Positions 25,131-37,253 of a stretch of DNA of 64,000 nucleotides are shown in pieces. The first letter of the stretch is position 1. Each line of letters opens with the position of its first letter. This stretch comes from Gemmatimonadetes bacterium T265 (GTDB lineage: Bacteria; Gemmatimonadota; Gemmatimonadetes; Gemmatimonadales; Gemmatimonadaceae). Below the pieces are notes generated by a model that was not told the origin of the DNA, ran no database searches, and was given only the letters and a program-made list of their open reading frames with translations. Location: the NCBI GenBank assembly GCA_019973575.1, contig BPUI01000001.1, positions 558,001 through 622,000 of the forward strand, given 5' to 3'. A program made the translations under genes and the position numbers.

Positions 25131-26168
25131 TCAGCTGCCGAGGAGGAGCGAGACGAGCAGCGTCGCGATGAGGCCGAACGCGGCGACGACAAAATAGACT
25201 CCGGTCAGGAGTGCGACCTTCGCGGTCGTTCGCGCGCGGGACTCCCGACCGGTGCCGTAGACGCGGCGCGTGGCGAGCCACAGGTAGACGAGCGTCCATA
25301 CCGTCGGGACTAACGCCAGCCGTCCGGGGACGACGCGGGCCGCGGCGATCGCGATCAGCCCCTGGGCGTGCGTGTGCCAGGCGAAGACGACGTGCTCCGC
25401 GTAGAACAGCCGCGCGCCGCGCCACAACAGCGAGCACAGGAACGCGAACACCGGCACGAGCAGTGAGAGAGCCGTGCCGAGGTGGCCGAGGAACAGCCCT
25501 TCGAGCCACCGGCTCGCGTCGGCCGACGAGCGTCGGTCGATCTCGTCCTGTCGCTCACGGATGCTGCGCGCGATGCGCGCGCGTACCGAGTTCCCCTGCG
25601 GGACGGCGTCGGCTCGCTTCACCGGCCACTCGCCGTAGAACTTCACGATGTCGGCGACGGCGAAGTTGAGTCGCGTCGTGTCGGGAGGCGCGGCGGGCGC
25701 TCCTGCGGTCGCGGCTCGACGCGCGGGGGCCGTCTGCGGTCGCGTTTCGCTTGCCCGCGTGATGTGGACGATGCTCTGGCCGCCGGGGAGTGGCGCGCGG
25801 AGTGCGAGGAAGAGGAGCGCGCTCGCGAGGAGGTAGAGCTGGAAGGGCGAGAGGTACCGCTTGCGGCGCCCGGCGAGGGACTCGCGGGTGAGGGCACCCG
25901 GACGGGCGAGGAGGAGGCCGAACGTCGCCGGGATCTTGTGGTCCCAACCCGTGAGCGACTCGAACAGGTCGCTCGCGAAGGTGTGGAGTGGGCGGTGAAA
26001 GTCGCGTTGCGCCTGCCCGCAGTCTGGGCAGTACGCACGCGGCGACGCGGCGCCGCAGTTCGGGCACCGCGTCTCACAAGGCGCGGGGTCGGGCGCTGGC
26101 GGGTGGCGGTCGAGGGCGGCCGCGGTCGCACCGTCGACTGACGGAGGGGCGAGCTGGGGCACGCCCAA
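25131..26168 (-). CDS. DUF3667-type zinc-ribbon membrane protein
   Basis: The 345-residue protein has an N-terminal zinc ribbon (CPNCG...YCPDCG). The DUF3667 stretch follows (HRPLHTFASDLFESLTGWDH, then TFGLLLARPGALTRESLAGR and RKRYLSPFQLYLLASALLFL), with four or five membrane helices in the C-terminal half. Function is unknown. Start is TTG 26168 or GTG 26162. The minus strand reads TATACC about 14 bases upstream, a plausible -10. Confidence 0.8.
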   Translation of the reverse strand: MGVPQLAPPSVDGATAAALDRHPPAPDPAPCETRCPNCGAASPRAYCPDCGQAQRDFHRPLHTFASDLFESLTGWDHKIPATFGLLLARPGALTRESLAGRRKRYLSPFQLYLLASALLFLALRAPLPGGQSIVHITRASETRPQTAPARRAATAGAPAAPPDTTRLNFAVADIVKFYGEWPVKRADAVPQGNSVRARIARSIRERQDEIDRRSSADASRWLEGLFLGHLGTALSLLVPVFAFLCSLLWRGARLFYAEHVVFAWHTHAQGLIAIAAARVVPGRLALVPTVWTLVYLWLATRRVYGTGRESRARTTAKVALLTGVYFVVAAFGLIATLLVSLLLGS

Positions 26169-26246: not shown

Positions 26247-28712
26247 TCACGAGCATCCCGACCGGATTGGCTGCGCGACGGGGACGACGATCACGCCCGA
26301 GCGCGCGGCGCCGACGAGGACGAGGTCGCCGTTGGCGCGGACCGAGGCGCGGATCGGGCCGACGATCGGGTCGCGGACCGGGATCGTGCGGACGCGTTGA
26401 TAGCAGTACGTGTCGTAGATCTCGATCTGGGGCAGCTGTGATGCCGAGAAGGCGTAGCGGGTGCCGGGGGGCGAGTTCCCGCCCGTATTACGGGGGTGGA
26501 AGTCGAAGCCGGCGTTCGGGCCGCCGCTCGTCTGGAGGAGGCCCTGGAGGCGGAGCGTCGGGTCGAGGAGGTACGTCGAATCGCCGCGGACGGCGCCGAG
26601 CCCGCCATCGAAGTTGATCGCGACGCCCGAGACGCGGGCGTAGCTGTTGGCGATGAAGTCGGAGACGTCGAAGGCGCGCGAGACGCCGAGGTCCGTGACC
26701 GGGGTCGAAAGGGTGTAGGTGTTGTTCGAGAGGACGTCGGTGACCGAGGAGGCGAGTCCGCGCGCGGCGTCGTAGAGGAGGGTGCGGCTTCCGAGCACCG
26801 GACCGCCCTCGCCGAAGATGGCGCGGCCGAAGTTGCCCGAGCTGCGGACGAAGGTGGTGTCGCGGAAGCCGAGCTTCGACAGGTCGACAACGACCGAGTA
26901 CGTGGTTGGCGCGCCGGTGAGCGCGTTCGTGGCGGGCTGCTGGTAAGGAACCAGCGTCGAGTCGTGGCCTACGCCCTGGGCGGCGTAGCGGACGACGAGG
27001 AGCGTGTCCCAGTGGCCTTGCGCGAGCCCGGTCGCCTGCTCGAAGAAGAGGTGCGACGAGTGGCGGACGAGGTTTTCCCAGCGGATCGTGCCCGCGTTCG
27101 GGAACGGGGACGACTGGCCGCCCGTGGGGGTGGTCGAGTAGACGAGGATCGGTTCGGCGCAGCCGTTGCCGGTCGACGCGGAGCCGCTGCAGGTCGTGGC
27201 GAGGAACTGCGGGCGGTCGCTGAAGTCGTACATCGTGCGCTGCTGGACGGCCTGGCCGGCGGCGTTGAGCGTCGTCGTGACCGAGTAGGCGACGATGTTG
27301 GGGAGCGCATAGCGGTAGACCTCGCGGCCCGAGCCGCCACCGGTGAGGTCGACGTAGCTGACGTTGGTGCCGCCCGAGTTGGCGACGATGAGCGTGTCGC
27401 CGAAGGTCCCGTCCGTCGCGCGCGGCCAGGCGGCGATGCCCCAGGGCTGCGAGCCGACGGCAACCGGCGAAAGGAACCGGCGGCCGGCGAGGTCGAAGAC
27501 CTCGAGTTGGTTCAGTTGCAGGTTCGTGAGGTAGAGACGGTCGAGGTGTGGGACGTAGAGGCCGTCGGCGAGTTGGCCGCCCTGCGGGAGCGGGCTCGTC
27601 ACGCCCGCGACGACGACGGCGGTGTCCGGGGCAGCGCTGTTGCTGCTGAGGGCCATCGTCGCGCGCTTGCCACCGCTGTTCGTCGCGAAGCCGCGCACGT
27701 AGACGCGGAGCGGGAGCGAGTCGGCGGTCGTGGTGAGGGTGTCGGGTCGGAGGCGGAGGGTAAAGCGGCGGGCGTCGTTGACGAGCGAGCCGTCGAGGAC
27801 GACCGAGTCGACGCCGAAGCGGCGCGTCGTGTCGGCGCGCGAGAGGATTTCGTAGCCGATGACCTTGACGCCGGTGGGGTCGGAGGCGGAGACGCGGAGC
27901 GTATCGGCGACCTCGAGGCGGACCGGGAACGCGGCGGTGGCGACGGGGGCGACGCTGCTCGTCGCCACCGTCTGGACGGCGTACTGGACGGGGGCGCCGT
28001 TGGCCACTCGACCCGCGCCGTCAACGACGAACGGCTGCACGGTGAGCACGCCGGCCGGTGCGTTGGCCGGGACGGCGAGCGTGTCGGTGACGACGACCGA
28101 GTCGGCGAGCGCGCTGCCCGCGTAGATGACCGAGTCGGCGGTCGTGAACGGGCCGGAGGTGCGGTAGCCGACCGCGCGGACCCTCATCGGCGAGGCGGCG
28201 ACGAGGGTGAGCGCGCCCTTCTTGCCGACGACGAAGAGGGAGGCCGAGACCGGGGCGACGAGCGTGACCGCGGGGGGGCGCACGTTGCCCGCCGAGAGGC
28301 GGAGGGTGTCGCTGGCGGTCTCGTTGCCCGCGCCGTCGCGCGCGTGGGCGACGACGTAGATCGGCGTGCCGGCGGCGACGCTCGCGGGGACGGGGACGCG
28401 CATCGCCAGCGCGAAGCTCGTCGTCGCCGCGGCGGGTGTCGTGTCCCTGGTCATCTGCACGCCGCCGGTGACGTCGACGTGGACGTGCGCGAGGTCGAGG
28501 TTGTCGCTCGCGAGGACGGCGAACGAGACGGCGGAATCGCCGATCGCGTTCTTGACCGTGGTGTCGAAGTGGACGGCCGGCGCCTGCTTGTCGGCGACGA
28601 ATCCGGCGACGCTGTCGGCCTGCGAACCGCACGCAGCCAAACCGGGGGCGGCGAGCGCGCCGGCCGCGAGCAGGGCGACGGCGGACGGGCGCAGGGAGCG
28701 GAGGGGGCGCAT
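26247..28712 (-). CDS. Large surface lipoprotein coupled to pilQ
   Basis: From the ATG at 28710-28712 the protein has 821 residues and a lipoprotein signal (LLAAGALAAPGLAAC). Residues about 35-390 look like several Ig/Big-type beta domains (SFAVLASDNLDLAHVHVDVT, APVSASLFVVGKKGALTLVA). Residues about 400 to the end resemble a propeller-type fold (LDRLYLTNLQLNQLEVFDLA, PWGIAAWP, GDTLIVANSGGTNVSYVDL). It starts five bases after the pilQ stop, so it is the last gene of the pilus operon. I do not recognise it as a named pilus component. A PilY1-like adhesin or tip-regulator role is only a positional inference. Confidence 0.75.
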   Translation of the reverse strand: MRPLRSLRPSAVALLAAGALAAPGLAACGSQADSVAGFVADKQAPAVHFDTTVKNAIGDSAVSFAVLASDNLDLAHVHVDVTGGVQMTRDTTPAAATTSFALAMRVPVPASVAAGTPIYVVAHARDGAGNETASDTLRLSAGNVRPPAVTLVAPVSASLFVVGKKGALTLVAASPMRVRAVGYRTSGPFTTADSVIYAGSALADSVVVTDTLAVPANAPAGVLTVQPFVVDGAGRVANGAPVQYAVQTVATSSVAPVATAAFPVRLEVADTLRVSASDPTGVKVIGYEILSRADTTRRFGVDSVVLDGSLVNDARRFTLRLRPDTLTTTADSLPLRVYVRGFATNSGGKRATMALSSNSAAPDTAVVVAGVTSPLPQGGQLADGLYVPHLDRLYLTNLQLNQLEVFDLAGRRFLSPVAVGSQPWGIAAWPRATDGTFGDTLIVANSGGTNVSYVDLTGGGSGREVYRYALPNIVAYSVTTTLNAAGQAVQQRTMYDFSDRPQFLATTCSGSASTGNGCAEPILVYSTTPTGGQSSPFPNAGTIRWENLVRHSSHLFFEQATGLAQGHWDTLLVVRYAAQGVGHDSTLVPYQQPATNALTGAPTTYSVVVDLSKLGFRDTTFVRSSGNFGRAIFGEGGPVLGSRTLLYDAARGLASSVTDVLSNNTYTLSTPVTDLGVSRAFDVSDFIANSYARVSGVAINFDGGLGAVRGDSTYLLDPTLRLQGLLQTSGGPNAGFDFHPRNTGGNSPPGTRYAFSASQLPQIEIYDTYCYQRVRTIPVRDPIVGPIRASVRANGDLVLVGAARSGVIVVPVAQPIRSGCS

Positions 28713-28717
28713 GGCGG

Positions 28718-30766
28718 TCAGCGGCGCGGGGGCAGGACCGGGGGCATCGGCGTCGCGGGCTGCTCGCCCTCGTCGAGGATCTGCGGGGTGACGAGGATCA
28801 GCAGATCCTGCTTCGTCTCGGAGGTCGTGGTCTGGCCGAAGAGGCCGCCGACGATCGGGAGGTTGCCGAGGACGGGGATCGCGCTGCGAGAGCGCGAGCG
28901 CTGCGTGACGGTGAGGCCGCCGATCACCGCGGTCTCGCCGTCGCCGACGAGCAGGCGGTTCTCCGCGCGCTGGCGGTTGAAGATCACGCCGACGTCGGAG
29001 TTGTCGGTCTGCGCGTTGGAGTTCTCCGCGCGGACGTCGAGGACGATGCGGCGGTTGTTGGTCACTTGGGGCGTGACGGAGAGTCGGATGCCGGCCTCCT
29101 CGAGGCGCACGGTGGCGCGCGGGAAGGCGCCGATCCCGCTGCCGCCCGCGCCGGCGTCGATGACGCGGATGGGGACCTGCTGCCCGACGAAGATCTCCGC
29201 GGTCCGGTTGTTCAGCGTCACGATGCTCGGCTCGCTCTGGATGTCGGCGAGCGAGTTCTGCTGGAGCGCGTTGACGAACGCGGTGAGCTGGTACCGGCCG
29301 AGCGTGAGCGAGTAGATGAGGTTGAGCGCGGACGACTTCATCGCGTTCGAGGCGTTGGCGAGCGCGGAGAGCGCGTTGCCGCCTAACGCGATCTGGCCGG
29401 TGCTGTAGGGCGTGCCGCCGCCGAGGCCGGCGACGCGGCCGTCGGGGCCGTAGACCGGGACGCGCGTCGACGGGTCGACGCGCGGGACGAGGGTGTTGAA
29501 GAACTGCTGCGTGCCCTTGCCGAGGTCGTAGGAGATGCCGATGTCCTGAAGGCGGGAGCGGTTGACGAAGACGATCTTCGCCTTGATCGCGACCTGCGGC
29601 GTGCGGACGTCGAGCTCGCGGAGGCGGGCGAGCATGTCGCCCATGCGCGAGGGCACGTCGGTGATGAGGAGCTTGTTGGTGGCGGTGTCGGCGGTGACGG
29701 ACCCGCGGATCATGCACCCCGCGGGCGCGGCGGCGGATCCGCCGCCCTGGGCCGCGGGCGCGGGGCCGGCGGCGCCGGTGGCGCAGTCGCGCGAGAGCAG
29801 CGACTGGACGACGGGGATGAGGGCGGAGGCCTTCGCGTAGTTGACGTCGACGATCTGCGTCGCGAGCGGCTCGACGGAGCGGACGGTGGCGAGGTTGCGC
29901 CAGCTGTCGACGGTGATGATGCCATAGCGGTCCTCGCTCGCCGCGAGCCCCTGCGCGCCCAACAGCGCGCGCAAGGCGATGTCCCAGGGCTGGTCCTTGA
30001 TCTCGGCCGTCACCGTGCCCGAGACGTCGCGGCCGGCGATGATCGTGCGGCCGGAGAAGGCGGCGAACGCGGCGATGACGTCGCGGATGTCGGCGTCCTG
30101 GTACGTGACAGTCAGCCGGCGCGACTCGGCCGGGCGCCGCGCGGCGAGGGGTGCGGGCGCGGGCGCGGCGGGCACGTCGTCCGCGGCCGCGGCGTCGGCG
30201 GCGGCGGGCACGCTGGGGCGCGCGGCGCGACGGACGGCCGGACGCGACGCGGGCACGACGCGGGCGACCGGCGGGTGGTCGGCCGACTGCCGGTCGGCTG
30301 CGGCGTCGCCGGCCGCCTCGGGGCCGCCGACGACGACGCGGACACCGTCGTCGCCGCGCTCGACGCGGTACGGACGCGCGCGGTCGAGCTCGACGACGAC
30401 GCGGACGACCCCGGCGCGGAACTGCGACGTCCGCACGCCGACCACGCCACCCTGCGGCGCCTCCGCGGCCGCGCCGGCCGCGGCCCCGCGCGCGAGCACC
30501 GCGCCGGAGAGGTCGAGCACGATGCGGCGGGGAGCGTCGAGGGTGAAGTCCTGCACCTGCGCGGCACCGTCGACGTGGACGTGCACGGTCGTCGCGCCGG
30601 CGGCGGCGCCCGCGCCGGGCGCGACGCTCACGCCCGTGACGGCGGCGCGACCGTCAGCTGGGACGGTGACCGCGGCCGAGCGGGGCGCGGGCCCGACGGC
30701 ACCCCATGCGCCGCCGACCGCGGCGTGCAGCACGGCGGCGCTGAGGAGGGAGCGGAGGACCGTCAT
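28718..30766 (-). CDS. pilQ: Type IV pilus secretin PilQ
   Basis: PilQ is the outer-membrane gate for the pilus fibre. The 682-residue protein has a signal peptide, an AMIN domain (about 40-150, VQDFTLDAPRRIVLDLSGAV and RVVVELDRARPYRVERGDDG), and an STN/secretin N domain (YQDADIRDVIAAFAAFSGRT, IKDQPWDIALRALL). The secretin core has TNKLLITDVPSRM, LQQNSLADIQSEPSIVTLNN and the C-terminal LGNLPIVGGLF...LLILVTPQIL. The four-base overlap with pilP and the order pilM-N-O-P-Q are standard. Confidence 0.96.
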   Translation of the reverse strand: MTVLRSLLSAAVLHAAVGGAWGAVGPAPRSAAVTVPADGRAAVTGVSVAPGAGAAAGATTVHVHVDGAAQVQDFTLDAPRRIVLDLSGAVLARGAAAGAAAEAPQGGVVGVRTSQFRAGVVRVVVELDRARPYRVERGDDGVRVVVGGPEAAGDAAADRQSADHPPVARVVPASRPAVRRAARPSVPAAADAAAADDVPAAPAPAPLAARRPAESRRLTVTYQDADIRDVIAAFAAFSGRTIIAGRDVSGTVTAEIKDQPWDIALRALLGAQGLAASEDRYGIITVDSWRNLATVRSVEPLATQIVDVNYAKASALIPVVQSLLSRDCATGAAGPAPAAQGGGSAAAPAGCMIRGSVTADTATNKLLITDVPSRMGDMLARLRELDVRTPQVAIKAKIVFVNRSRLQDIGISYDLGKGTQQFFNTLVPRVDPSTRVPVYGPDGRVAGLGGGTPYSTGQIALGGNALSALANASNAMKSSALNLIYSLTLGRYQLTAFVNALQQNSLADIQSEPSIVTLNNRTAEIFVGQQVPIRVIDAGAGGSGIGAFPRATVRLEEAGIRLSVTPQVTNNRRIVLDVRAENSNAQTDNSDVGVIFNRQRAENRLLVGDGETAVIGGLTVTQRSRSRSAIPVLGNLPIVGGLFGQTTTSETKQDLLILVTPQILDEGEQPATPMPPVLPPRR

Positions 30767-31332
30767 GGCTGCTTGGTGAGGGAGGAGTCGGAGAGCGTGA
30801 CGACTTCCGTGCGGCTGAAGCCGAGCTCCTCGACGGCGAAGACCACCGTGCGGGGGCGGATGCGGACGACTCGCATGCGGCCCACGCGCCCGCCGACGCC
30901 GAGGCGGTGCTGGGCCTTCGTGGTGCCGTCGCGGAGGATCGCGACGGAGCCGACCCCGGTCGGGTCGTACGCGACCGCGACGAGCCGCAGCTCGCTCGGG
31001 AGCGGGCGGAGCGCGGCCGTGACCATGAGCGAACGGAACGGGTCGCGGCGGCCCGCGCCGGCGTAGTCGAAGGCCTCGCGCTCGACGACAACGGTGTCGG
31101 GCGCGTCGACCGCGGCGGCGTGGCGCGCGGGCGCCGGGACGGCAGGCGGCGGCGCATGCGGCGCCGCGTGTGGCGTCACGTGGCGCTGCGACGGGCGGGG
31201 CGCGGGCGCGGCGCTCGCGTCGTCGGCGGACGCGGAGCGCGCGGCGGCGGCACCGCCGGCCACGACGACGAGGGCCGTGGCGTAAATCGCGGTGCGCCGG
31301 GTCACGCCGGCGCGGAGTGCCGGGCGGCTCAC
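30763..31332 (-). CDS. pilP: Pilus assembly protein PilP-like
   Basis: The 189-residue protein has one N-terminal membrane segment (AIYATALVVVAGGAAAA), a Pro/His/Ala-rich linker (about 35-75) and a C-terminal beta domain. This domain starts with GRRDPFRSLM and contains LVAVAYDPTGVGSVAILRDG, HRLGVGGRVGRMRVVRIRPR and VVFAVEELGF, as in PilP. PilP links the inner-membrane PilNO to PilQ. It overlaps both pilO and pilQ by four bases. Confidence 0.85.
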   Translation of the reverse strand: MSRPALRAGVTRRTAIYATALVVVAGGAAAARSASADDASAAPAPRPSQRHVTPHAAPHAPPPAVPAPARHAAAVDAPDTVVVEREAFDYAGAGRRDPFRSLMVTAALRPLPSELRLVAVAYDPTGVGSVAILRDGTTKAQHRLGVGGRVGRMRVVRIRPRTVVFAVEELGFSRTEVVTLSDSSLTKQP

Positions 31333-31970
31333 GGGATCACCTCGCCGCCGGCCCCGATCGTCGTGTGACGCCCCGTCGCGGGCGCGGGGTGCACGACGTA
31401 AGTCTGCACGGTCACGGCGGCCGAGAGCGGCGTCGCGGTCGCGGGGCGGCGCGGGTCGCGCGCGCCGCCGTCGGCGCGCGGCACGAGCTGGAAGGTGACC
31501 GGCGCGACGATGCGCGGCAGCGACCCGACGTTGGCGAGGAACGTCGTGAGCGGGTGGTACCCGCCGGCGACGGTCAGTTTGTATCGGTACGTGTCGAACT
31601 CGGGGCCCGGGAGCATCGGCTCGGGGGCCACGCCGCCGATCTCGAGCCCCGCGCGGCGCGCCGCCGTCGAGACCTGTTCGAGCAGCCCCGGCACCTCGTG
31701 CTCGGTCGGGACGAGGCGGCGGAGCGCCTCGAGCGTGGCGCGCGAGCGGGCGGCCTCGCGCGCGAGTTCGGCGGGCTTCACGCCGGCGGCCGCCTCGCGG
31801 CGCGCCTTCGCGTTCGCCGACTCGACGCGCTCGACCCGCGCCTCGCGCTCGGCGAGCGCGTCGGCGGCGGCCGCGTACGGGTAGGCGTAGTAGTACCCGA
31901 GCCCCGCCAGCGCGACGACGCCGGCGGCGATCTTGGCCTGGGCCCTGGGGTCCTGCGGCAGGAGGGGCAT
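31329..31970 (-). CDS. pilO: Pilus assembly protein PilO-like
   Basis: The 213-residue protein has one N-terminal membrane helix (IAAGVVALAGLGYYYAYPYA), a long coiled-coil-like stretch (residues about 38-90, rich in Glu/Ala/Arg) and a ferredoxin-like periplasmic domain. The PilO patterns are LVPTEHEVPGLLEQVSTAAR, YRYKLTVAGGYHPLTTFLAN and RIVAPVTFQL. It pairs with PilN in the inner-membrane alignment complex. It is coupled to pilP by ATGA. Confidence 0.88.
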   Translation of the reverse strand: MPLLPQDPRAQAKIAAGVVALAGLGYYYAYPYAAAADALAEREARVERVESANAKARREAAAGVKPAELAREAARSRATLEALRRLVPTEHEVPGLLEQVSTAARRAGLEIGGVAPEPMLPGPEFDTYRYKLTVAGGYHPLTTFLANVGSLPRIVAPVTFQLVPRADGGARDPRRPATATPLSAAVTVQTYVVHPAPATGRHTTIGAGGEVIP

Positions 31971-32030: not shown

Positions 32031-32804
32031 TCAGCGCGACGGCGCCACGGGCACGGCGAGCCGCTCGGTGCGGAGGAGGTCGTGCGGCGGGGTCTGGAGT
32101 TCCGCGTCGAGCGTGAACTCGGTGACGTCCTTGCCGTCGACCTGCGCGGCCTCGGAGCGGGCGAGCTGCACGTGCTGCACGAACGGCGACGCCTCGAGGT
32201 CGCGCATGAGCGCGGTGAGGGCCTGGATGTCGACGGTCTGCCCGACGATGCGGAAGGCGAGCGCGGCGCGCGGGCCAGCGGAGTCGGCCTTCACACCCTT
32301 GTCGGCCGGCGGTCGGTCGCCGGCGGACTTCGCGGCCGCGCCGCCCTTCGCGTCCCGGCCCGGGGGCGCGGGGAGCGGCGGCGCGCTCGTCTGCTGGACG
32401 GCCGTGAGCCAGGTGTAGGGCGGCAGCGCACGGCTCACCTCGTCGAGCACGTGGGCCCACGCGTACCGCGCGCTGTCGATCGACGTGATGACGCCCAGCT
32501 GCCGCCGCACGCTATCCCGCTCGGCCGACGCGGCGCGTCGGGCCGCGAGGAGCGCGGCGTAGCGCGACGAGTCGGCCGTCGCGGCCCGCTCGCGCTCGGC
32601 GAGGGCGACGTCGGCTCGCGCCTGACTCGTGTAGAGGAACCCGCCGCCGCCGAGGGCGAGCAGCACGGCGGCGACCGCGCCGGCAAGGTGCGGGTCGCCG
32701 ACGAGGCCCCGCGCGCGCGCGGCGAACGCGGCGAGTGCGTCGCCGAGTCGCTCGCCGGACCGTTCGCCGTCGGGGTCGAGCAGGTTGATCTCGATCATCG
32801 TCAT
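32031..32804 (-). CDS. pilN: Pilus assembly protein PilN-like
   Basis: From the ATG at 32802-32804 (ATGA overlap with pilM) it has 257 residues. The start MTMIEINLLDPDGE is the conserved PilN motif that binds PilM. It is followed by a membrane helix (LAGAVAAVLLALGGGGFLYT), a coiled-coil part and a periplasmic domain (WLTAVQQT...FRIVGQTVDIQALTALMRDL EASPFV). A Lys/Ala/Pro-rich insert (about 150-180) lengthens the protein. Confidence 0.88.
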   Translation of the reverse strand: MTMIEINLLDPDGERSGERLGDALAAFAARARGLVGDPHLAGAVAAVLLALGGGGFLYTSQARADVALAERERAATADSSRYAALLAARRAASAERDSVRRQLGVITSIDSARYAWAHVLDEVSRALPPYTWLTAVQQTSAPPLPAPPGRDAKGGAAAKSAGDRPPADKGVKADSAGPRAALAFRIVGQTVDIQALTALMRDLEASPFVQHVQLARSEAAQVDGKDVTEFTLDAELQTPPHDLLRTERLAVPVAPSR

Positions 32805-33898
32805 GCGGCGGCTCTCGCGGCGGCCGCGGTGCGGGCGGCGCGGCCGACCGGTCGGCGGACGCCGAGCCCGATGGCGAGCAGCAGGAGCGGGGCGACGGCC
32901 TCGGCGTCGATCCCGTCGAGCGCGCCGTCGGCGACGGCGATCCCGGCGAGCGGGTTGAGGCTTTCGACCCGGACCCGGAGCCGGGCCGCCGTGGCGGCCG
33001 CGAGACCGGGGACGCGCGCGCCGCCGCCGCCGAGGAAGAGGGCGCGGAGCGGGCCCGCGTCGTCGCTGCCGGAGCTGAGCACCGCGGTCGCGCGCTCGAC
33101 TTCGGCCGCGAGGTCTTCCGCGTAGCGCCCGACGAGCGCGGCGAGCGCGGGCGAGGGGCGCTCGCCGCGGAGGAGCGCGTCGGCGGCCGGGGCGGACAGT
33201 CCGAGTTCGCGCTGCAAATCCTCGCGCAGGCGGCGGGTGCCGAGGGCGAGGTCGCGGGTGAGCACCGGGACGTTGCCGTCGAGCACGTTGACGATCGTCG
33301 TCTCGTTGCCGACGTGGGCGAGCGCGACGAGACCGTCGCCGGCCTCCGCGGCGCTGGGCGGCGTCGACACGATGTAGGCGTTGTGCAGCGCGAACGCGTC
33401 GACGTCGACGACGGCGGGCGCGACGCCCGCGTCGGCCAGGAGCGCGATGCGGGCGTCGACGAGCTCGCGCTTCGCGGCCGCGATCAGCACGCCCATCTCT
33501 GCCTCGCTTCCCTCGGGGTCGAGCACGTGGAAGTCGAGCGCCACCGAGCTCATGTCGAACGGCACGTGCTGCTCGGCCTCCCATCGCAGGAGCGCCCGCG
33601 CCTCAGCGCCGCGCGCCCGCGGCGCGCGGATGCGTTTCACGATGACGTCGCGCCCGCCGACCGCGACGGCGACGGCCGCCTTTCCCGAACCCGCGGCGGC
33701 GATCGTCGTGCGCACGGCGTCGACGACGAGCGCCGGATCCATGACGTCGCCCTCTACGATCGCGTCGTCGGCCAGGGGCGTGACGACCGCTCGGACGAGC
33801 TCAGGCGCTCCTCCGGCGTGATCGAGGACGACGGCCTTGACGAGCCCGGACCCGATGTCGAGACCGACGGTCTGCTTGGGACGGCCGAACAAGCGCAT
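32801..33898 (-). CDS. pilM: Pilus assembly ATPase-like PilM
   Basis: PilM is an actin-like cytoplasmic protein that binds PilN. From the ATG at 33896-33898 it has 365 residues (family about 350). The motifs are VGLDIGSGLVKAVVLDHAGG (phosphate 1), AVGGRDVIVKRIRAP, ALLRWEAEQHVPFDMSSVAL, FALHNAYIV, VALAHVGNETTIVNVLDG and LFLGGGGARVPGL. It heads the pilMNOPQ-lipoprotein operon. A 191-base gap before the minor-pilin gene may hold its promoter, though none is clear. Confidence 0.93.
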   Translation of the reverse strand: MRLFGRPKQTVGLDIGSGLVKAVVLDHAGGAPELVRAVVTPLADDAIVEGDVMDPALVVDAVRTTIAAAGSGKAAVAVAVGGRDVIVKRIRAPRARGAEARALLRWEAEQHVPFDMSSVALDFHVLDPEGSEAEMGVLIAAAKRELVDARIALLADAGVAPAVVDVDAFALHNAYIVSTPPSAAEAGDGLVALAHVGNETTIVNVLDGNVPVLTRDLALGTRRLREDLQRELGLSAPAADALLRGERPSPALAALVGRYAEDLAAEVERATAVLSSGSDDAGPLRALFLGGGGARVPGLAAATAARLRVRVESLNPLAGIAVADGALDGIDAEAVAPLLLLAIGLGVRRPVGRAARTAAAARAAA

Positions 33899-34089
33899 GC
33901 TGCGGAAGGGCGTCGGAGCGGGGGCGGGCGGCATGCCGCGGCGGGGGCACCGGGCACGGAACGGTGTCGCGCACGTGCCACGGTTCGAGCTAGACACGAG
34001 CCGCGCGCGAGCGAGGTAACAGCCTGACGGAAGACGTAGCAGACGTCGCGAGGGCGCGATCCGCCCCCGGCACGCGCGACGACAAGGCG

Positions 34090-35238
34090 TCAGCGCACAA
34101 CGTCGACCCACGCGCGCCGGGCGAGCGGAACGGGACGTGAGGCCGCCGCGGCGGCGCGCTCGAGCGCACAGCGCGAGCGCCGCACACGAGAGCCGGTGCC
34201 GAGCGCCGCGCCGTTGCCGCGCGCGAGCAGCGCGCCATCGACGACGAGCGAACCGGTCGACGACTGGACGGTTCCGCCGACGACGACGAGGCCGGCGACC
34301 TCGACGCGGCCGACGACGTCGAGCGAGCCGTCGACGAGAAGGGTCCCCTGGAGGCGCGCCGGGCCACGGATGGTGGACGACCCGGGGCCGCGGATGTGGA
34401 TGACCGGGTAGTCCGTGGTGCAGTTCGTGACGGCACCCGGGCCGCGGAGCGGCTCGCCCCAGCTCGCGGCGTCACGCGCGCAGGCCGGATCGGGCGCCGG
34501 CGCGGCGCGTGGAACGGGGGTGAAGGTGCCGCCAGCGGTGAGAATGACGTCGGCGCGGGCGGCGAGCGTCGCGCGGTCGACGTCGCCGAACCGTTCGGGC
34601 ACGGGGGGCGTCCACGTCGCCGGGGCTGTAACGACCGACCCGGCGACGCGCGCACCGGTCGCGAGCGTGGCGGACGGTGCCGCCACCGCGGCGGGCGGTA
34701 CGTCGGGCGTGGTCACACAATCGCTCCACGTCGGTGGAGGCGCGTCGGCGGCCCGGACGTCGGTATCGGTCGCGAGCGAGACTGGACCGGCGGCGACGAC
34801 CACGGCCGGTACGTCGTAGGCAACGTTGTCCAACTGCGCGAACACTCCGGTGCGGCGCACCGCCGGGCCGACCGGGCCGGCGACCGCGGCGCTCGTGGCG
34901 TCGGCCGTGAGCAGGTACCGGCGGACGTCGAGCCGGAGCGCGCGCACGGTCGCCGAGCCTGCGGGCGACGTGATCGTACGCGTGTCGGAGCCGCCGGGGA
35001 TCAGCACCGTGGTCCACGTGCTCGGCCAGTTTGCCAGGACGGTGGTGAGTGCGCCGTCCGCGGCGGTACGGGCCCGGAGTGCTCCGGCGGCTCCGGATGC
35101 GTCCTGCAGGAGCGTGCGGCCGAGGGAGGCGGCCGCGGTCGCGGCGAGCGTGGCGACGATGAGAACGACGAGCACGGCAACAAGGGCCGAGCCGTGGCGG
35201 GTCGCGCGCGGGCGGGCGCTGTGCGGTGCGCGTCTCAC
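34090..35238 (-). CDS. PilX-like pseudopilin or pilus assembly protein
   Basis: From the GTG at 35236-35238 (GTGA overlap) it has 382 residues. After a basic lead (RRAPHSARPRATRHG) comes a hydrophobic prepilin-like helix (SALVAVLVVLIVATLAATAA), with Gly before the cleavage point and no Phe at +1. The long C-terminal part ends in beta-helix-like repeats (LQGTLLVDGSLDVVGRVEVA and GLVVVGGTVQSSTGSLVVDG). This layout matches PilX/DUF7305-type minor pilus proteins. Secreted or pilus-tip placement is inferred. Confidence 0.7.
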   Translation of the reverse strand: MRRAPHSARPRATRHGSALVAVLVVLIVATLAATAAASLGRTLLQDASGAAGALRARTAADGALTTVLANWPSTWTTVLIPGGSDTRTITSPAGSATVRALRLDVRRYLLTADATSAAVAGPVGPAVRRTGVFAQLDNVAYDVPAVVVAAGPVSLATDTDVRAADAPPPTWSDCVTTPDVPPAAVAAPSATLATGARVAGSVVTAPATWTPPVPERFGDVDRATLAARADVILTAGGTFTPVPRAAPAPDPACARDAASWGEPLRGPGAVTNCTTDYPVIHIRGPGSSTIRGPARLQGTLLVDGSLDVVGRVEVAGLVVVGGTVQSSTGSLVVDGALLARGNGAALGTGSRVRRSRCALERAAAAASRPVPLARRAWVDVVR

Positions 35239-36245
35239 CGGTTGCCTCGCGGGCGGATGACGGCGACGGTGCTGTCGATGCAGCGCAGGCGCGGGTCGCG
35301 GGCGCTGCACGGGGCGCGGAGGAGCACGCGGATCTCTGCCGCGACACGTTGCGGCGGTGTGCCCTGGACGGGCGTGCCGGAGGTGTCAACGGCGTCGAGC
35401 TGGAGACCGCGGCGGCCTGGCGTATCGAACGGTCCTGCAGCGGGCTGGATGCCGTCCCAGGCGCTGCCGTCCCACTCGCGGAGGCCGAGTTGCCAGCCGT
35501 CGGGGGCGCGGTAGAGGGAATAGCGGCGGTGGCGGCCGACGCGCACGGGGGCGCCGGCGCCGACCGTCGACGGCAGGACTGGTGGGTCGAGCGCGAGGCG
35601 GACTCGCAGCGCGCCCGGGCCGGTGCCGGCCGCGGTGGCGGTGGCGAACGGTCCGGAGCGGCAGTACGTCGTGCCCTCGCTCACGGTGCGCACGGTGCGG
35701 AGCGTCCAGCGGTCATCGGCGGGGGAGGGCGTGCCGGCGTCGTCGTGGAAGAAGGCGACGTCGCCCGTGCGGGGCGGCGTATTCCACCACACGAGCGTGG
35801 GTGCCGACGGGACGTCGGGGACGCTCGCGAGTTCGACGATGCTGCCGGTGCTGGATACGGACGTGACGGCGCAGGCTACCCCGCCGCCCACGGTCGCGGT
35901 GAGTTCGACCGCGGTGTCGGCGAGGGCGCGGAGGTCGCTCGGGTCCGCGCCGTCGGCGGCGGCGGTGATCGGGCGGAGGTCGGCCGTGAGCGCGCCGGCC
36001 GCCTGTTCGAGTTGGGCGCGCGCCGCGGCGCGGGCGTCGTGCTCGTGGCTGGCGCGTGCGACGCGGACCGCGACGCTGAGGGCGGCGGCGAGCACGAGCG
36101 CGCCGAGTACGGCGGCGAGTAGCGCGTCGACGAGCGCGGTGCCGCGGCGGGCGCGCCCACGCGTTGCAGGTGCCGATGTCACGGGCGCCGATGTCACGGG
36201 CGCCGATGTCACGGGCGCCGGTGTCGCGGGCGATGACGCGGTCAC
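35235..36245 (-). CDS. PilW-like minor pseudopilin
   Basis: From the GTG at 36243-36245 it has 336 residues. A low-complexity lead contains VTSAP repeats, then RRGTALVDALLAAVLGALVLAAALSVA forms the prepilin helix (G|T cleavage likely). The rest is a beta-rich domain with several Cys. Both ends overlap neighbouring pseudopilin genes by four bases. PilW is the best fit by position and size, but not by specific motif. Confidence 0.65.
   Translation of the reverse strand: MTASSPATPAPVTSAPVTSAPVTSAPATRGRARRGTALVDALLAAVLGALVLAAALSVAVRVARASHEHDARAAARAQLEQAAGALTADLRPITAAADGADPSDLRALADTAVELTATVGGGVACAVTSVSSTGSIVELASVPDVPSAPTLVWWNTPPRTGDVAFFHDDAGTPSPADDRWTLRTVRTVSEGTTYCRSGPFATATAAGTGPGALRVRLALDPPVLPSTVGAGAPVRVGRHRRYSLYRAPDGWQLGLREWDGSAWDGIQPAAGPFDTPGRRGLQLDAVDTSGTPVQGTPPQRVAAEIRVLLRAPCSARDPRLRCIDSTVAVIRPRGNR
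36172..36231. repeat. Four 15-base tandem repeats in the PilW-like leader
   Basis: Copies of GCCGATGTCACGGGC at 36172, 36187 and 36202, plus a diverged copy at 36217, encode the Val-Thr-Ser-Ala-Pro repeats near the N-terminus of the PilW-like protein. The repeat is in frame (15 bases = five residues), so copy-number change would alter only the length of the leader before the prepilin peptidase site. Confidence 0.85.
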
Positions 36246-36607
36246 GGCGCGCACCACGCGACGGCGACGATGCCGACGCGCTGCGTGCCGTTCGCGTCGA
36301 GGAGAACGGTGTCGGCGAGCGTGGCGGCGGCGCCGGCGCGGGTCGCGCGCCACTGTTCGACGAGCGGTCCCGCTGGTTGCGTGCCGGCCGCGGGGGTGCA
36401 GGGGCTGGCGCGCCAGCGTTCGACGCGGGCGGCGAGGAGCATAACGCCGGCGTGGCGGGCGCGGGCGCGGCGGGCGTCACGCGCGGCGGAGGCGAGGAGG
36501 CCCGCGGCGCCGAGGACGCCGACGGTGAGGACCGTGGCAGCGACGACGACTTCGGCGAGGACGGTCCCGCGCCGGCGGCGGGCGGGGGGGCGGGGCGAGG
36601 TGGGCAC
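36242..36607 (-). CDS. PilV-like minor pseudopilin
   Basis: The 121-residue protein has a basic leader (PTSPRPPARRRRG), then TVLAEVVVAATVLTVGVLGA as the prepilin helix with the conserved Glu at +5 of the mature form. The remaining domain is short, with two Cys (SPCTP, AWCAP). It resembles PilV/GspI-type minor pilins. It is the first gene of the three-gene minor-pilin operon. Confidence 0.75.
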   Translation of the reverse strand: MPTSPRPPARRRRGTVLAEVVVAATVLTVGVLGAAGLLASAARDARRARARHAGVMLLAARVERWRASPCTPAAGTQPAGPLVEQWRATRAGAAATLADTVLLDANGTQRVGIVAVAWCAP

Positions 36608-36710
36608 GCCGCCAGTGTACGACCGACCCGCGCGGGCGGGTGGGCCGCGACGTTGCGGGGTGGGGCGAAACGTTGCGTGCCGTTGCGTGCCGGGCGGGGC
36701 CCGGGACGCG

Positions 36711-36748
36711 CGCGAGGGCCCGCCCCCGGGTGGGGGCGGGCCCTCGCG
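36711..36748 (-). terminator. Perfect GC-rich hairpin after pilA
   Basis: A 17-bp perfect stem (36711-36727 with 36732-36748) on a four-base loop lies 52 bases past the pilA stop and about 100 bases before the pilV-like start. It probably ends the pilA transcript and keeps the abundant pilin message separate from the minor pilins. A GCCTAACG motif abuts it. No T tract follows. Confidence 0.7.
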
Positions 36749-36800
36749 ATGCCTAACGGAGCGGGCGGGGTCCGCCCGTCAGGCCGGTCTCACGTCGGGC

Positions 36801-37253
36801 TTACTTGCAGGCCGGGACGCCGTCCTGGAGCGAGACGCCGGGGACCACCGCGGCTGCCGCGGAGCTGTCGGTCGAGCCGCCGCTGTAGATCGCGCAGGCG
36901 GTGATCGACTTCACCGACGGGTTGGTGATCTTGGCCGCCCAGCCCGTCGCGGACGGGGTGCCGAGCATCGCCGCCGTCGATCCGTTGCTTTCCTTGAAGC
37001 TGTACGGAGCGGCCGTGACCTTGGTGTAGTCGCCGTACTTGTTGCTGTCGGAGAAGAACGACTCCTGGACGCTGACGAGGTTCTTGAGGTCCGACTTCAT
37101 GTTGGCGACGAACGCCTTCTCCTTGGTGTTCGCGAACTTCGGAATCGCGACGGCGGCGAGGATCCCGATGATCACGACGACGATCAGGAGCTCGATAAGC
37201 GTGAACCCCTTGCGGGCGGCCGAGCGGGTCGCGAGGCGGCGGGTGGTGCGCAT
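36801..37253 (-). CDS. pilA: Type IV major pilin PilA
   Basis: From the ATG at 37251-37253 it has 150 residues. The leader MRTTRRLATRSAARKG ends at Gly16, followed by the classic FTLIELLIVVVIIGILAAVA with Glu5. The mature part contains AIPKFANTKEKAFVANMKSDL, a short beta domain and two Cys (TACAIYS, VPACK) that probably form the C-terminal disulfide loop. A GGAG lies upstream. It is the first gene of the pilus locus and has its own terminator. Confidence 0.96.
   Translation of the reverse strand: MRTTRRLATRSAARKGFTLIELLIVVVIIGILAAVAIPKFANTKEKAFVANMKSDLKNLVSVQESFFSDSNKYGDYTKVTAAPYSFKESNGSTAAMLGTPSATGWAAKITNPSVKSITACAIYSGGSTDSSAAAAVVPGVSLQDGVPACK

What the first reader, a model, noticed from the sequence alone, without database searches (positions are those of the whole stretch)
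26247..30766. An 821-residue lipoprotein locked to the pilMNOPQ operon
It starts five bases after the pilQ stop. It combines Ig-like domains and a propeller-like C-terminal region under a lipoprotein signal. No named Pil protein has this form. The position suggests an adhesin, a pilus gate accessory or a PilY1/PilF functional substitute specific to this lineage.
Basis: inference. Interest (0 to 1): 0.5.

Follow-up and report, generated by a model that had tools for sequence, protein, structure and literature searches.

The report
PilQ-linked Ig-stalk propeller lipoprotein
Soil and water bacteria of the Gemmatimonadota carry, directly after the gene for the outer-membrane gate of their type IV pili, a gene for a fat-anchored protein with a chain of Ig-like domains and a seven-bladed propeller, probably an undescribed partner of that gate.

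Summary
Window 26247-28712 (minus strand) encodes an 821-residue lipoprotein that starts 5 nt after the pilQ stop. AlphaFold (mean pLDDT 87.8) gives three Ig-like domains and a seven-bladed YncE/WD40-type propeller behind lipobox Cys28. No Pfam model matches.

It is not a chance neighbour. Of 55 related genomes with a pil-type pilQ, 40 have it immediately downstream of pilQ, 13 lack it and 2 contigs end there. In a second set, pilQ lies upstream in all 76 loci (of 80) with upstream sequence. The link is to pilQ rather than to the flanking aroC. One genome with two pil operons keeps it only in the one unlinked to aroC. Elsewhere, inserts separate it from aroC but never from pilQ. Its divergence tracks PilQ's about as well as PilP's does. 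In a few genomes minor-pilin genes follow it.

Propeller size is nearly constant, while the Ig stalk runs from about one to about nine repeats. Best reading: an outer-membrane, probably surface-exposed, accessory partner of PilQ, lost about three times. PilY1 or PilF substitution is unproven; PilY1 is nearly absent from the phylum, a search that lacked a positive control. Binding to PilQ and orientation are inferred.

The parts
26247..28712 (-). Gene of the 821-aa lipoprotein (Ig stalk + propeller)
   Evidence: homologues
28632..28712 (-). Signal peptide, residues 1-27, ending in lipobox LAA|C
   Evidence: Cys invariant
28629..28631 (-). Cys28 codon, predicted lipid anchor
   Evidence: invariant in 59 of 59 rows of A3
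28293..28589 (-). Ig-like domain 1 (precursor residues about 42-140)
   Evidence: AlphaFold; repeat HMM
27972..28283 (-). Ig-like domain 2 (residues about 144-247)
   Evidence: fold match 9kvu Z 12.5
27657..27950 (-). Ig-like domain 3 (residues about 255-352)
   Evidence: repeat HMM E 0.0051
26268..27611 (-). Seven-bladed YncE/WD40-type beta-propeller (residues about 368-815)
   Evidence: YVTN-type weak hits
28718..30766 (-). pilQ, secretin with AMIN domain; stop 5 nt before the lipoprotein start
30763..31332 (-). pilP (by position and conservation; weak GspC hit)
31329..31970 (-). pilO
   Evidence: PF04350 E 2.1e-16
32100..32453 (-). PilN domain
   Evidence: PF05137 E 2.8e-12
32852..33865 (-). 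PilM domain
   Evidence: PF11104 E 5.1e-53
36801..37253 (-). pilA-like major pilin (GFTLIELLIVVVIIGILAAVAIPKFA), upstream end of the cluster
   Evidence: motif scan and translation; no Pfam scan done on it

Best explanation
[quoted passage not shown] After Sec export and lipidation at Cys28 it is anchored in the outer membrane. The Ig-like domains form a stalk of lineage-specific length, and the conserved propeller at the free end contacts a conserved partner, most likely the PilQ pore or the pilus that passes through it, probably on the outer face. There it would help hold, gate or stabilise the pore or the emerging pilus. Shown: the gene, its domains as a confident prediction, the near-strict pilQ linkage, co-divergence with PilQ, the constant head and variable stalk. 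Inferred: physical contact with PilQ, surface orientation, the gating or stabilising role.
For: Directly downstream of pilQ in 40 of 55 relatives with a pil-type pilQ; the single-sequence search found it in none of the 4 relatives without a pil-type pilQ. In a second set pilQ is upstream in 76 of 80 loci, the other 4 being contig ends. Linkage is to pilQ, not aroC: G012 has two pil operons and keeps the gene only in the one not linked to aroC; in G000, G003, G004 and G030 other DNA lies between it and aroC, while the pilQ-to-gene spacing stays within -47 to +108 nt where the start call worked. In the G004 lineage four pilin-like ORFs follow it, three with N_methyl/GspH Pfam hits, and motif matches lie there in L142 and L148. 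Distance matrices: partial r with PilQ 0.565 given aroC/aroK, as high as PilQ-PilP (0.557) and PilO-PilP (0.517), against 0.234 with PilO and 0.309 with PilP; PilQ cut to 174-206 columns still gives about 0.505 (34 genomes). Head is conserved (median identity 58%) and of near-constant size (425-520 aa in 103 proteins); Ig domains 32-38%, stalk about 150 to about 1000 aa.
Against: 13 of 55 relatives keep pilMNOPQ without it, so it is not essential for a pilus. Operon order is conserved in this phylum even for unrelated aroC-aroK, so neighbourhood alone is weak. The distance correlation also exists with aroK given aroC (partial r 0.364), so it is not unique to pil genes. No PilQ change clearly goes with loss: only 4 alignment columns and no residue switch in all four loss groups. 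With the profile, one of the 4 relatives without pil-type pilQ (G045) gives a weak match, E 2.9e-9. Nothing here shows outer-membrane sorting, surface exposure or contact with PilQ; no complex could be modelled.
Confidence: 0.6

Rival explanations
1. It is a periplasm-facing assembly or stability factor for PilQ, working like a pilotin or like the propeller lipoprotein BamB: it helps PilQ reach, fold in or multimerise in the outer membrane.
For: Outer-membrane lipoproteins that serve PilQ are usually periplasmic (Tgl, PilF; PMC10653833, passages seen). No PilF/Tgl-type protein reaches the family cut-off in 59 relatives (0 of 59). Co-divergence with PilQ. BamB as a propeller lipoprotein is recalled.
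Against: Stalk length from about one to about nine Ig domains fits poorly with fixed periplasmic geometry. Lineages without the gene keep PilQ, so PilQ must assemble without it there. No TPR, BamB or PQQ family hit at cut-off.
Confidence: 0.22
2. It is a surface adhesin or ligand-binding protein that is merely produced together with the pili and does not touch PilQ.
For: Lipid anchor, Ig stalk of variable length and a head is an adhesin-like layout; Ig-plus-propeller adhesins exist, e.g. BapP with a five-bladed propeller and 12 Ig-like folds (PMC12153261, passages seen).
Against: The head is the most conserved part (58% median identity), the reverse of what a ligand-diversifying adhesin usually shows. 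The strict tie to pilQ and co-divergence with PilQ rather than PilO/PilP.
Confidence: 0.13
3. Operon hitch-hiker: a lipoprotein of unrelated function kept between pilQ and aroC by vertical inheritance of a fixed gene order.
For: aroC and aroK are also kept next to this operon without obvious functional reason; the gene's presence is mostly clade-wise with about 4 changes on the PilQ tree.
Against: It stays with pilQ where aroC is separated by inserts, and in G012 it sits in a second, very divergent pil operon while the aroC-linked one lacks it. Not found by the single-sequence search in the 4 relatives lacking pil-type pilQ.
Confidence: 0.05

Closest known systems
PilY1/PilC, propeller protein of type IVa pili (PF05567)
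   Same: Pilus-linked protein with a C-terminal seven-bladed propeller and variable N-terminal part (propeller and EF-hand-like calcium site described in PMC13190605, passages)
   Different: Lipid-anchored rather than a pilus-tip protein; no PF05567 match in this protein; D.[DN].[DN]G loop in 1 of 59 homologues, not in the window's; linked to pilQ rather than usually to minor pilins
Pilotins PilF/PilW/Tgl of PilQ
   Same: Lipoprotein tied to PilQ
   Different: Pilotins of type IV pili are TPR proteins (TPR1 of PilF mentioned and Tgl as OM lipoprotein in PMC10653833); this one is all-beta
YncE / YVTN-type propellers, S-layer protein 1l0q
   Same: Propeller fold; weak sequence match 1l0q E 2.2e-6 over residues 354-457, YncE 3vgz Z 26.0, 3.8 A, 296 residues
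   Different: Those are stand-alone or surface-layer propellers without pil linkage (recalled); the propeller here is long, about 450 aa in all
BamB, propeller lipoprotein of the BAM complex (recalled)
   Same: Outer-membrane propeller lipoprotein serving a barrel protein
   Different: No BamB/PQQ family hit at cut-off; has an Ig stalk; linked to pilQ
BapP adhesin of Pseudoalteromonas
   Same: Ig-like repeats plus propeller (PMC12153261, passages)
   Different: Five-bladed N-terminal propeller, 12 Ig folds, Sec/SPI signal

Membership tests
PilY1 (PF05567) | Match to the PilY1 propeller model | tested here: not met
   0 Pfam families at E up to 1 for the protein
PilY1 (PF05567) | EF-hand-like calcium loop in the propeller | tested here: not met
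   Pattern D.[DN].[DN]G absent from the window protein, in 1 of 59 homologues; pattern recalled and simplified
PilY1 (PF05567) | Propeller fold like PilY1 3HX6 | tested here: inconclusive
   Seven-bladed-type propeller found; a PilY1 entry is not among the 50 rows shown, which excludes nothing
PilF/PilW/Tgl pilotins | Tandem TPR helices | tested here: not met
   Predicted structure is all-beta with no long helix; no TPR Pfam hit
PilF/PilW/Tgl pilotins | Needed for PilQ multimerisation | not testable with these tools
   needs a deletion strain
Bacterial lipoproteins (Sec/SPII) | N-terminal signal with lipobox Cys | tested here: met
   LAAC, Cys28 invariant in 59 of 59; lipidation itself not shown
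YVTN/YncE-type seven-bladed propellers | Seven-bladed propeller fold | tested here: met
   Z about 26-28 to WDR5, YncE and a designed seven-bladed propeller 7big
YVTN/YncE-type seven-bladed propellers | YVTN repeat model match | tested here: inconclusive
   TIGR02276 E 0.0019, 18.1 bits, under the cut-off 27.85
Type IV pilus cluster protein | Conserved in the pil operon | tested here: met
   40 of 55 relatives, 76 of 80 further loci with 4 unevaluable
BamB | BamB/PQQ propeller model | tested here: not met
   no hit in Pfam at E up to 1; NCBIfam gave only TIGR02276, TIGR03866 and NF053532, all under their cut-offs

The most novel reading that the evidence does not exclude
A phylum-specific, surface-displayed, lipid-tethered propeller sits over the mouth of PilQ on an Ig stalk whose length is tuned to each species' cell-surface layer, and takes over at the pore the adhesion or retraction-sensing task that the tip-carried PilY1 propeller has in other type IVa pili.
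Probability: 0.15. Interest if true: 0.75.

Novelty: new variant of a known kind. Interest (0 to 1): 0.5.

Why it matters
Type IV pili are among the commonest bacterial machines, and the parts list of their outer-membrane pore (PilQ, pilotin, TsaP) comes from few phyla. A conserved PilQ-linked lipoprotein family with no Pfam model would add a part in a poorly studied phylum, and may explain how pili work where PilY1 is nearly absent. Its natural presence/absence pattern, about three losses next to an intact pil operon, makes its role directly testable.

Tried and rejected
PilY1 membership: no PF05567 hit. In the phylum PF05567 matched 1 of 298 genomes and 0 of 256 good-quality ones, but none of the 14 control genomes rang, so the absence has no positive control, and a paper reports PilY1 relatives in Gemmatimonadota (PMC13190605, passages).

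PilF/PilW: 0 of 59 relatives over the cut-off; only general TPR hits. This does not show that a pilotin is absent.

PilT as a correlate of the gene's presence: PilT-type matches in 59 of 59, so uninformative.

PilQ signature of loss: 4 gap columns in at least 3 of 4 loss groups and one partial residue switch; too weak, not used.

Minor-pilin clusters in six genomes (L210-L215) searched for a second member of the family: none at E up to 10.

Whole-model Foldseek top hits (complement C4, alpha-2-macroglobulin; TM 0.1-0.2, rmsd mostly over 25 A) are multi-domain artefacts and were set aside. The first stalk-length calculation was spoiled by weak domain hits and was redone.

Rows left out: A2 used 35 of 40 relatives' proteins (five long or contig-cut ones left out). 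A3 used 58 of 63 length-selected database proteins plus the window; A4 left out two more. The distance analysis used 34 of 40 genomes, those with all six genes. In one search the start call failed for 8 of the 76 loci with pilQ upstream (seven set too far downstream, one not called); that is a script fault and no evidence of a gap.

Literature: searches gave no description of this protein in their listings; only passages of four papers were read (PMC13190605, PMC10581226, PMC12153261, PMC10653833). Papers outside that library were not searched.

Full report
OBSERVATION. On the minus strand, window 26247-28712 is an open frame of 821 residues that starts with ATG five bases after the pilQ stop. 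Upstream lie pilP, pilO, a PilN domain, a PilM domain, and further up a pilA-like pilin at about 36.8-37.25 kb. Between pilA and pilM, three frames have prepilin-like hydrophobic starts that I recognised by eye; the frames scanned there had no Pfam hit. No promoter-like or terminator-like site was found at 25.9-28.9 kb, with 0.0 and 0.6 expected.

WHAT THE PROTEIN IS. No Pfam family matches at E up to 1. NCBIfam gives only sub-threshold hits, two of them propeller models, and the PDB sequence search gives the surface-layer propeller 1l0q at E 2.2e-6 over residues 354-457. AlphaFold2 on a 59-row alignment gives an all-beta model, mean pLDDT 87.8: three beta-sandwich domains, then a propeller. 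The propeller aligns to WD40 and YncE propellers with Z about 26-28 over about 290 residues. The N-terminal part alone (pLDDT 90.4) aligns with Ig/FnIII-like domains, best Z 12.5, 92 residues, 2.0 A. The three domains are related to each other (one HMM finds all three). The lipobox Cys is invariant in 59 of 59.

DISTRIBUTION AND LINKAGE. A single-sequence search found relatives in 40 of 59 genomes at E up to 1e-3; pilQ-like matches occurred in 56 of 59. On fetched loci, 55 genomes have a pil-type pilQ. In 40 of them the gene is directly downstream of pilQ: 39 by search, plus G001, recognised by reading the 2.7 kb between pilQ and aroC and later confirmed by the profile, which was built with it, at E 3.7e-216. 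Two contigs end right after pilQ (G010, G058). Thirteen genomes lack it; in 12 of these pilQ is followed by aroC and in one (G057) by a frame that I read as topoisomerase I. G007's match lies on another contig and is weak (E 8.6e-4). With the profile, 159 of 298 genomes of the phylum match at E up to 1e-3, and by my count of that listing 128 at E up to 1e-40. A scan of 84,980 species' genomes gave 126 encoding stretches; the 80 kept are from records labelled Gemmatimonadota or unnamed bacteria, plus one labelled Kuenenia that I take to be mislabelled. The other 46 were not seen, so phylum specificity is likely but not proven. Among the 80, pilQ lies upstream in 76 and the remaining 4 begin at a contig end.

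PILQ, NOT AROC. The usual order is pilMNOPQ-gene-aroC-aroK, so linkage alone could be inertia. Three facts separate the two neighbours. First, in the window's genome a DUF3667 gene, and in G003, G004 and G030 other DNA, lie between the gene and aroC, while the gene was never found separated from pilQ in these loci. Second, G012 has two pil operons; the aroC-linked one lacks the gene, and a very divergent one (PilQ closest to a Longimicrobiales record at 37%) has it right after pilQ, in a short form of 564 residues. Third, in G004 four pilin-like ORFs follow the gene, three with N_methyl or GspH matches; two further genomes have prepilin motifs there (L142, L148). In the other loci scanned no such motif followed the gene.

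CO-DIVERGENCE. In 34 genomes, pairwise distances of the lipoprotein correlate with PilQ at r 0.64, partial 0.565 given aroC and aroK (999 permutations, p 0.001), against 0.309 for PilP and 0.234 for PilO. PilQ-PilP gives 0.557 and PilO-PilP 0.517. Cutting PilQ to 174 or 206 columns leaves about 0.505, so length does not explain it. Against this: aroK given aroC also gives 0.364, so the measure is not clean. On a PilQ tree the gene's presence needs 4 changes, one of them touching the long-branched G012 copy; with presence ancestral, that is about three losses.

ANATOMY AND MECHANISM. The propeller is nearly constant (425-520 aa in 103 proteins with a full match) and most conserved (median identity 58%), whereas the Ig domains are 32-38% identical and the stalk ranges from about 150 to about 1000 residues (106 proteins, duplicates included). 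A conserved head on a variable stalk suggests a conserved partner reached over a lineage-specific distance. Given the lipid anchor, linkage and co-divergence, I propose a PilQ accessory at the outer membrane, probably on the outer face. Contact, side and role are inferences. A pilotin-like or BamB-like periplasmic role is the main rival.

COMPARISON. It is not a PilY1 by sequence, nor a TPR pilotin. PilY1 (PF05567) was found in 1 of 298 genomes of the phylum (no positive control). Literature searches found no description of it. I therefore rate it a new variant of a known kind: a new secretin-linked accessory lipoprotein made of known folds.

Noticed in passing
window 25131-26168: A DUF3667 zinc-ribbon protein gene lies between the lipoprotein gene and aroC; it was recovered only in the window's own genome among the relatives' pil loci compared.
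   Followed up: partly
L074 (G012:C8): A second, very divergent pilMNOPQ operon with its own short version of the lipoprotein and prepilin-like frames nearby on the other strand; nearest PilQ is in a Longimicrobiales record.
   Followed up: partly
window 33993-36800: Three frames between pilA and pilM look like degenerate PilV/PilW/PilX-like minor pilins (hydrophobic prepilin-like starts) with no Pfam match.
   Followed up: no
L210 (G000:C1:1876500-1894500) and L211-L215: A separate cluster of minor pilins followed by a large PilX-like frame; matches to that large frame occur in 31 of 59 relatives, and no PilY1-like gene was recognised beside the six clusters read.
   Followed up: partly
L191, L107, L102: Versions of the lipoprotein with about five to nine Ig repeats before the same propeller, a natural length series.
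   Followed up: partly
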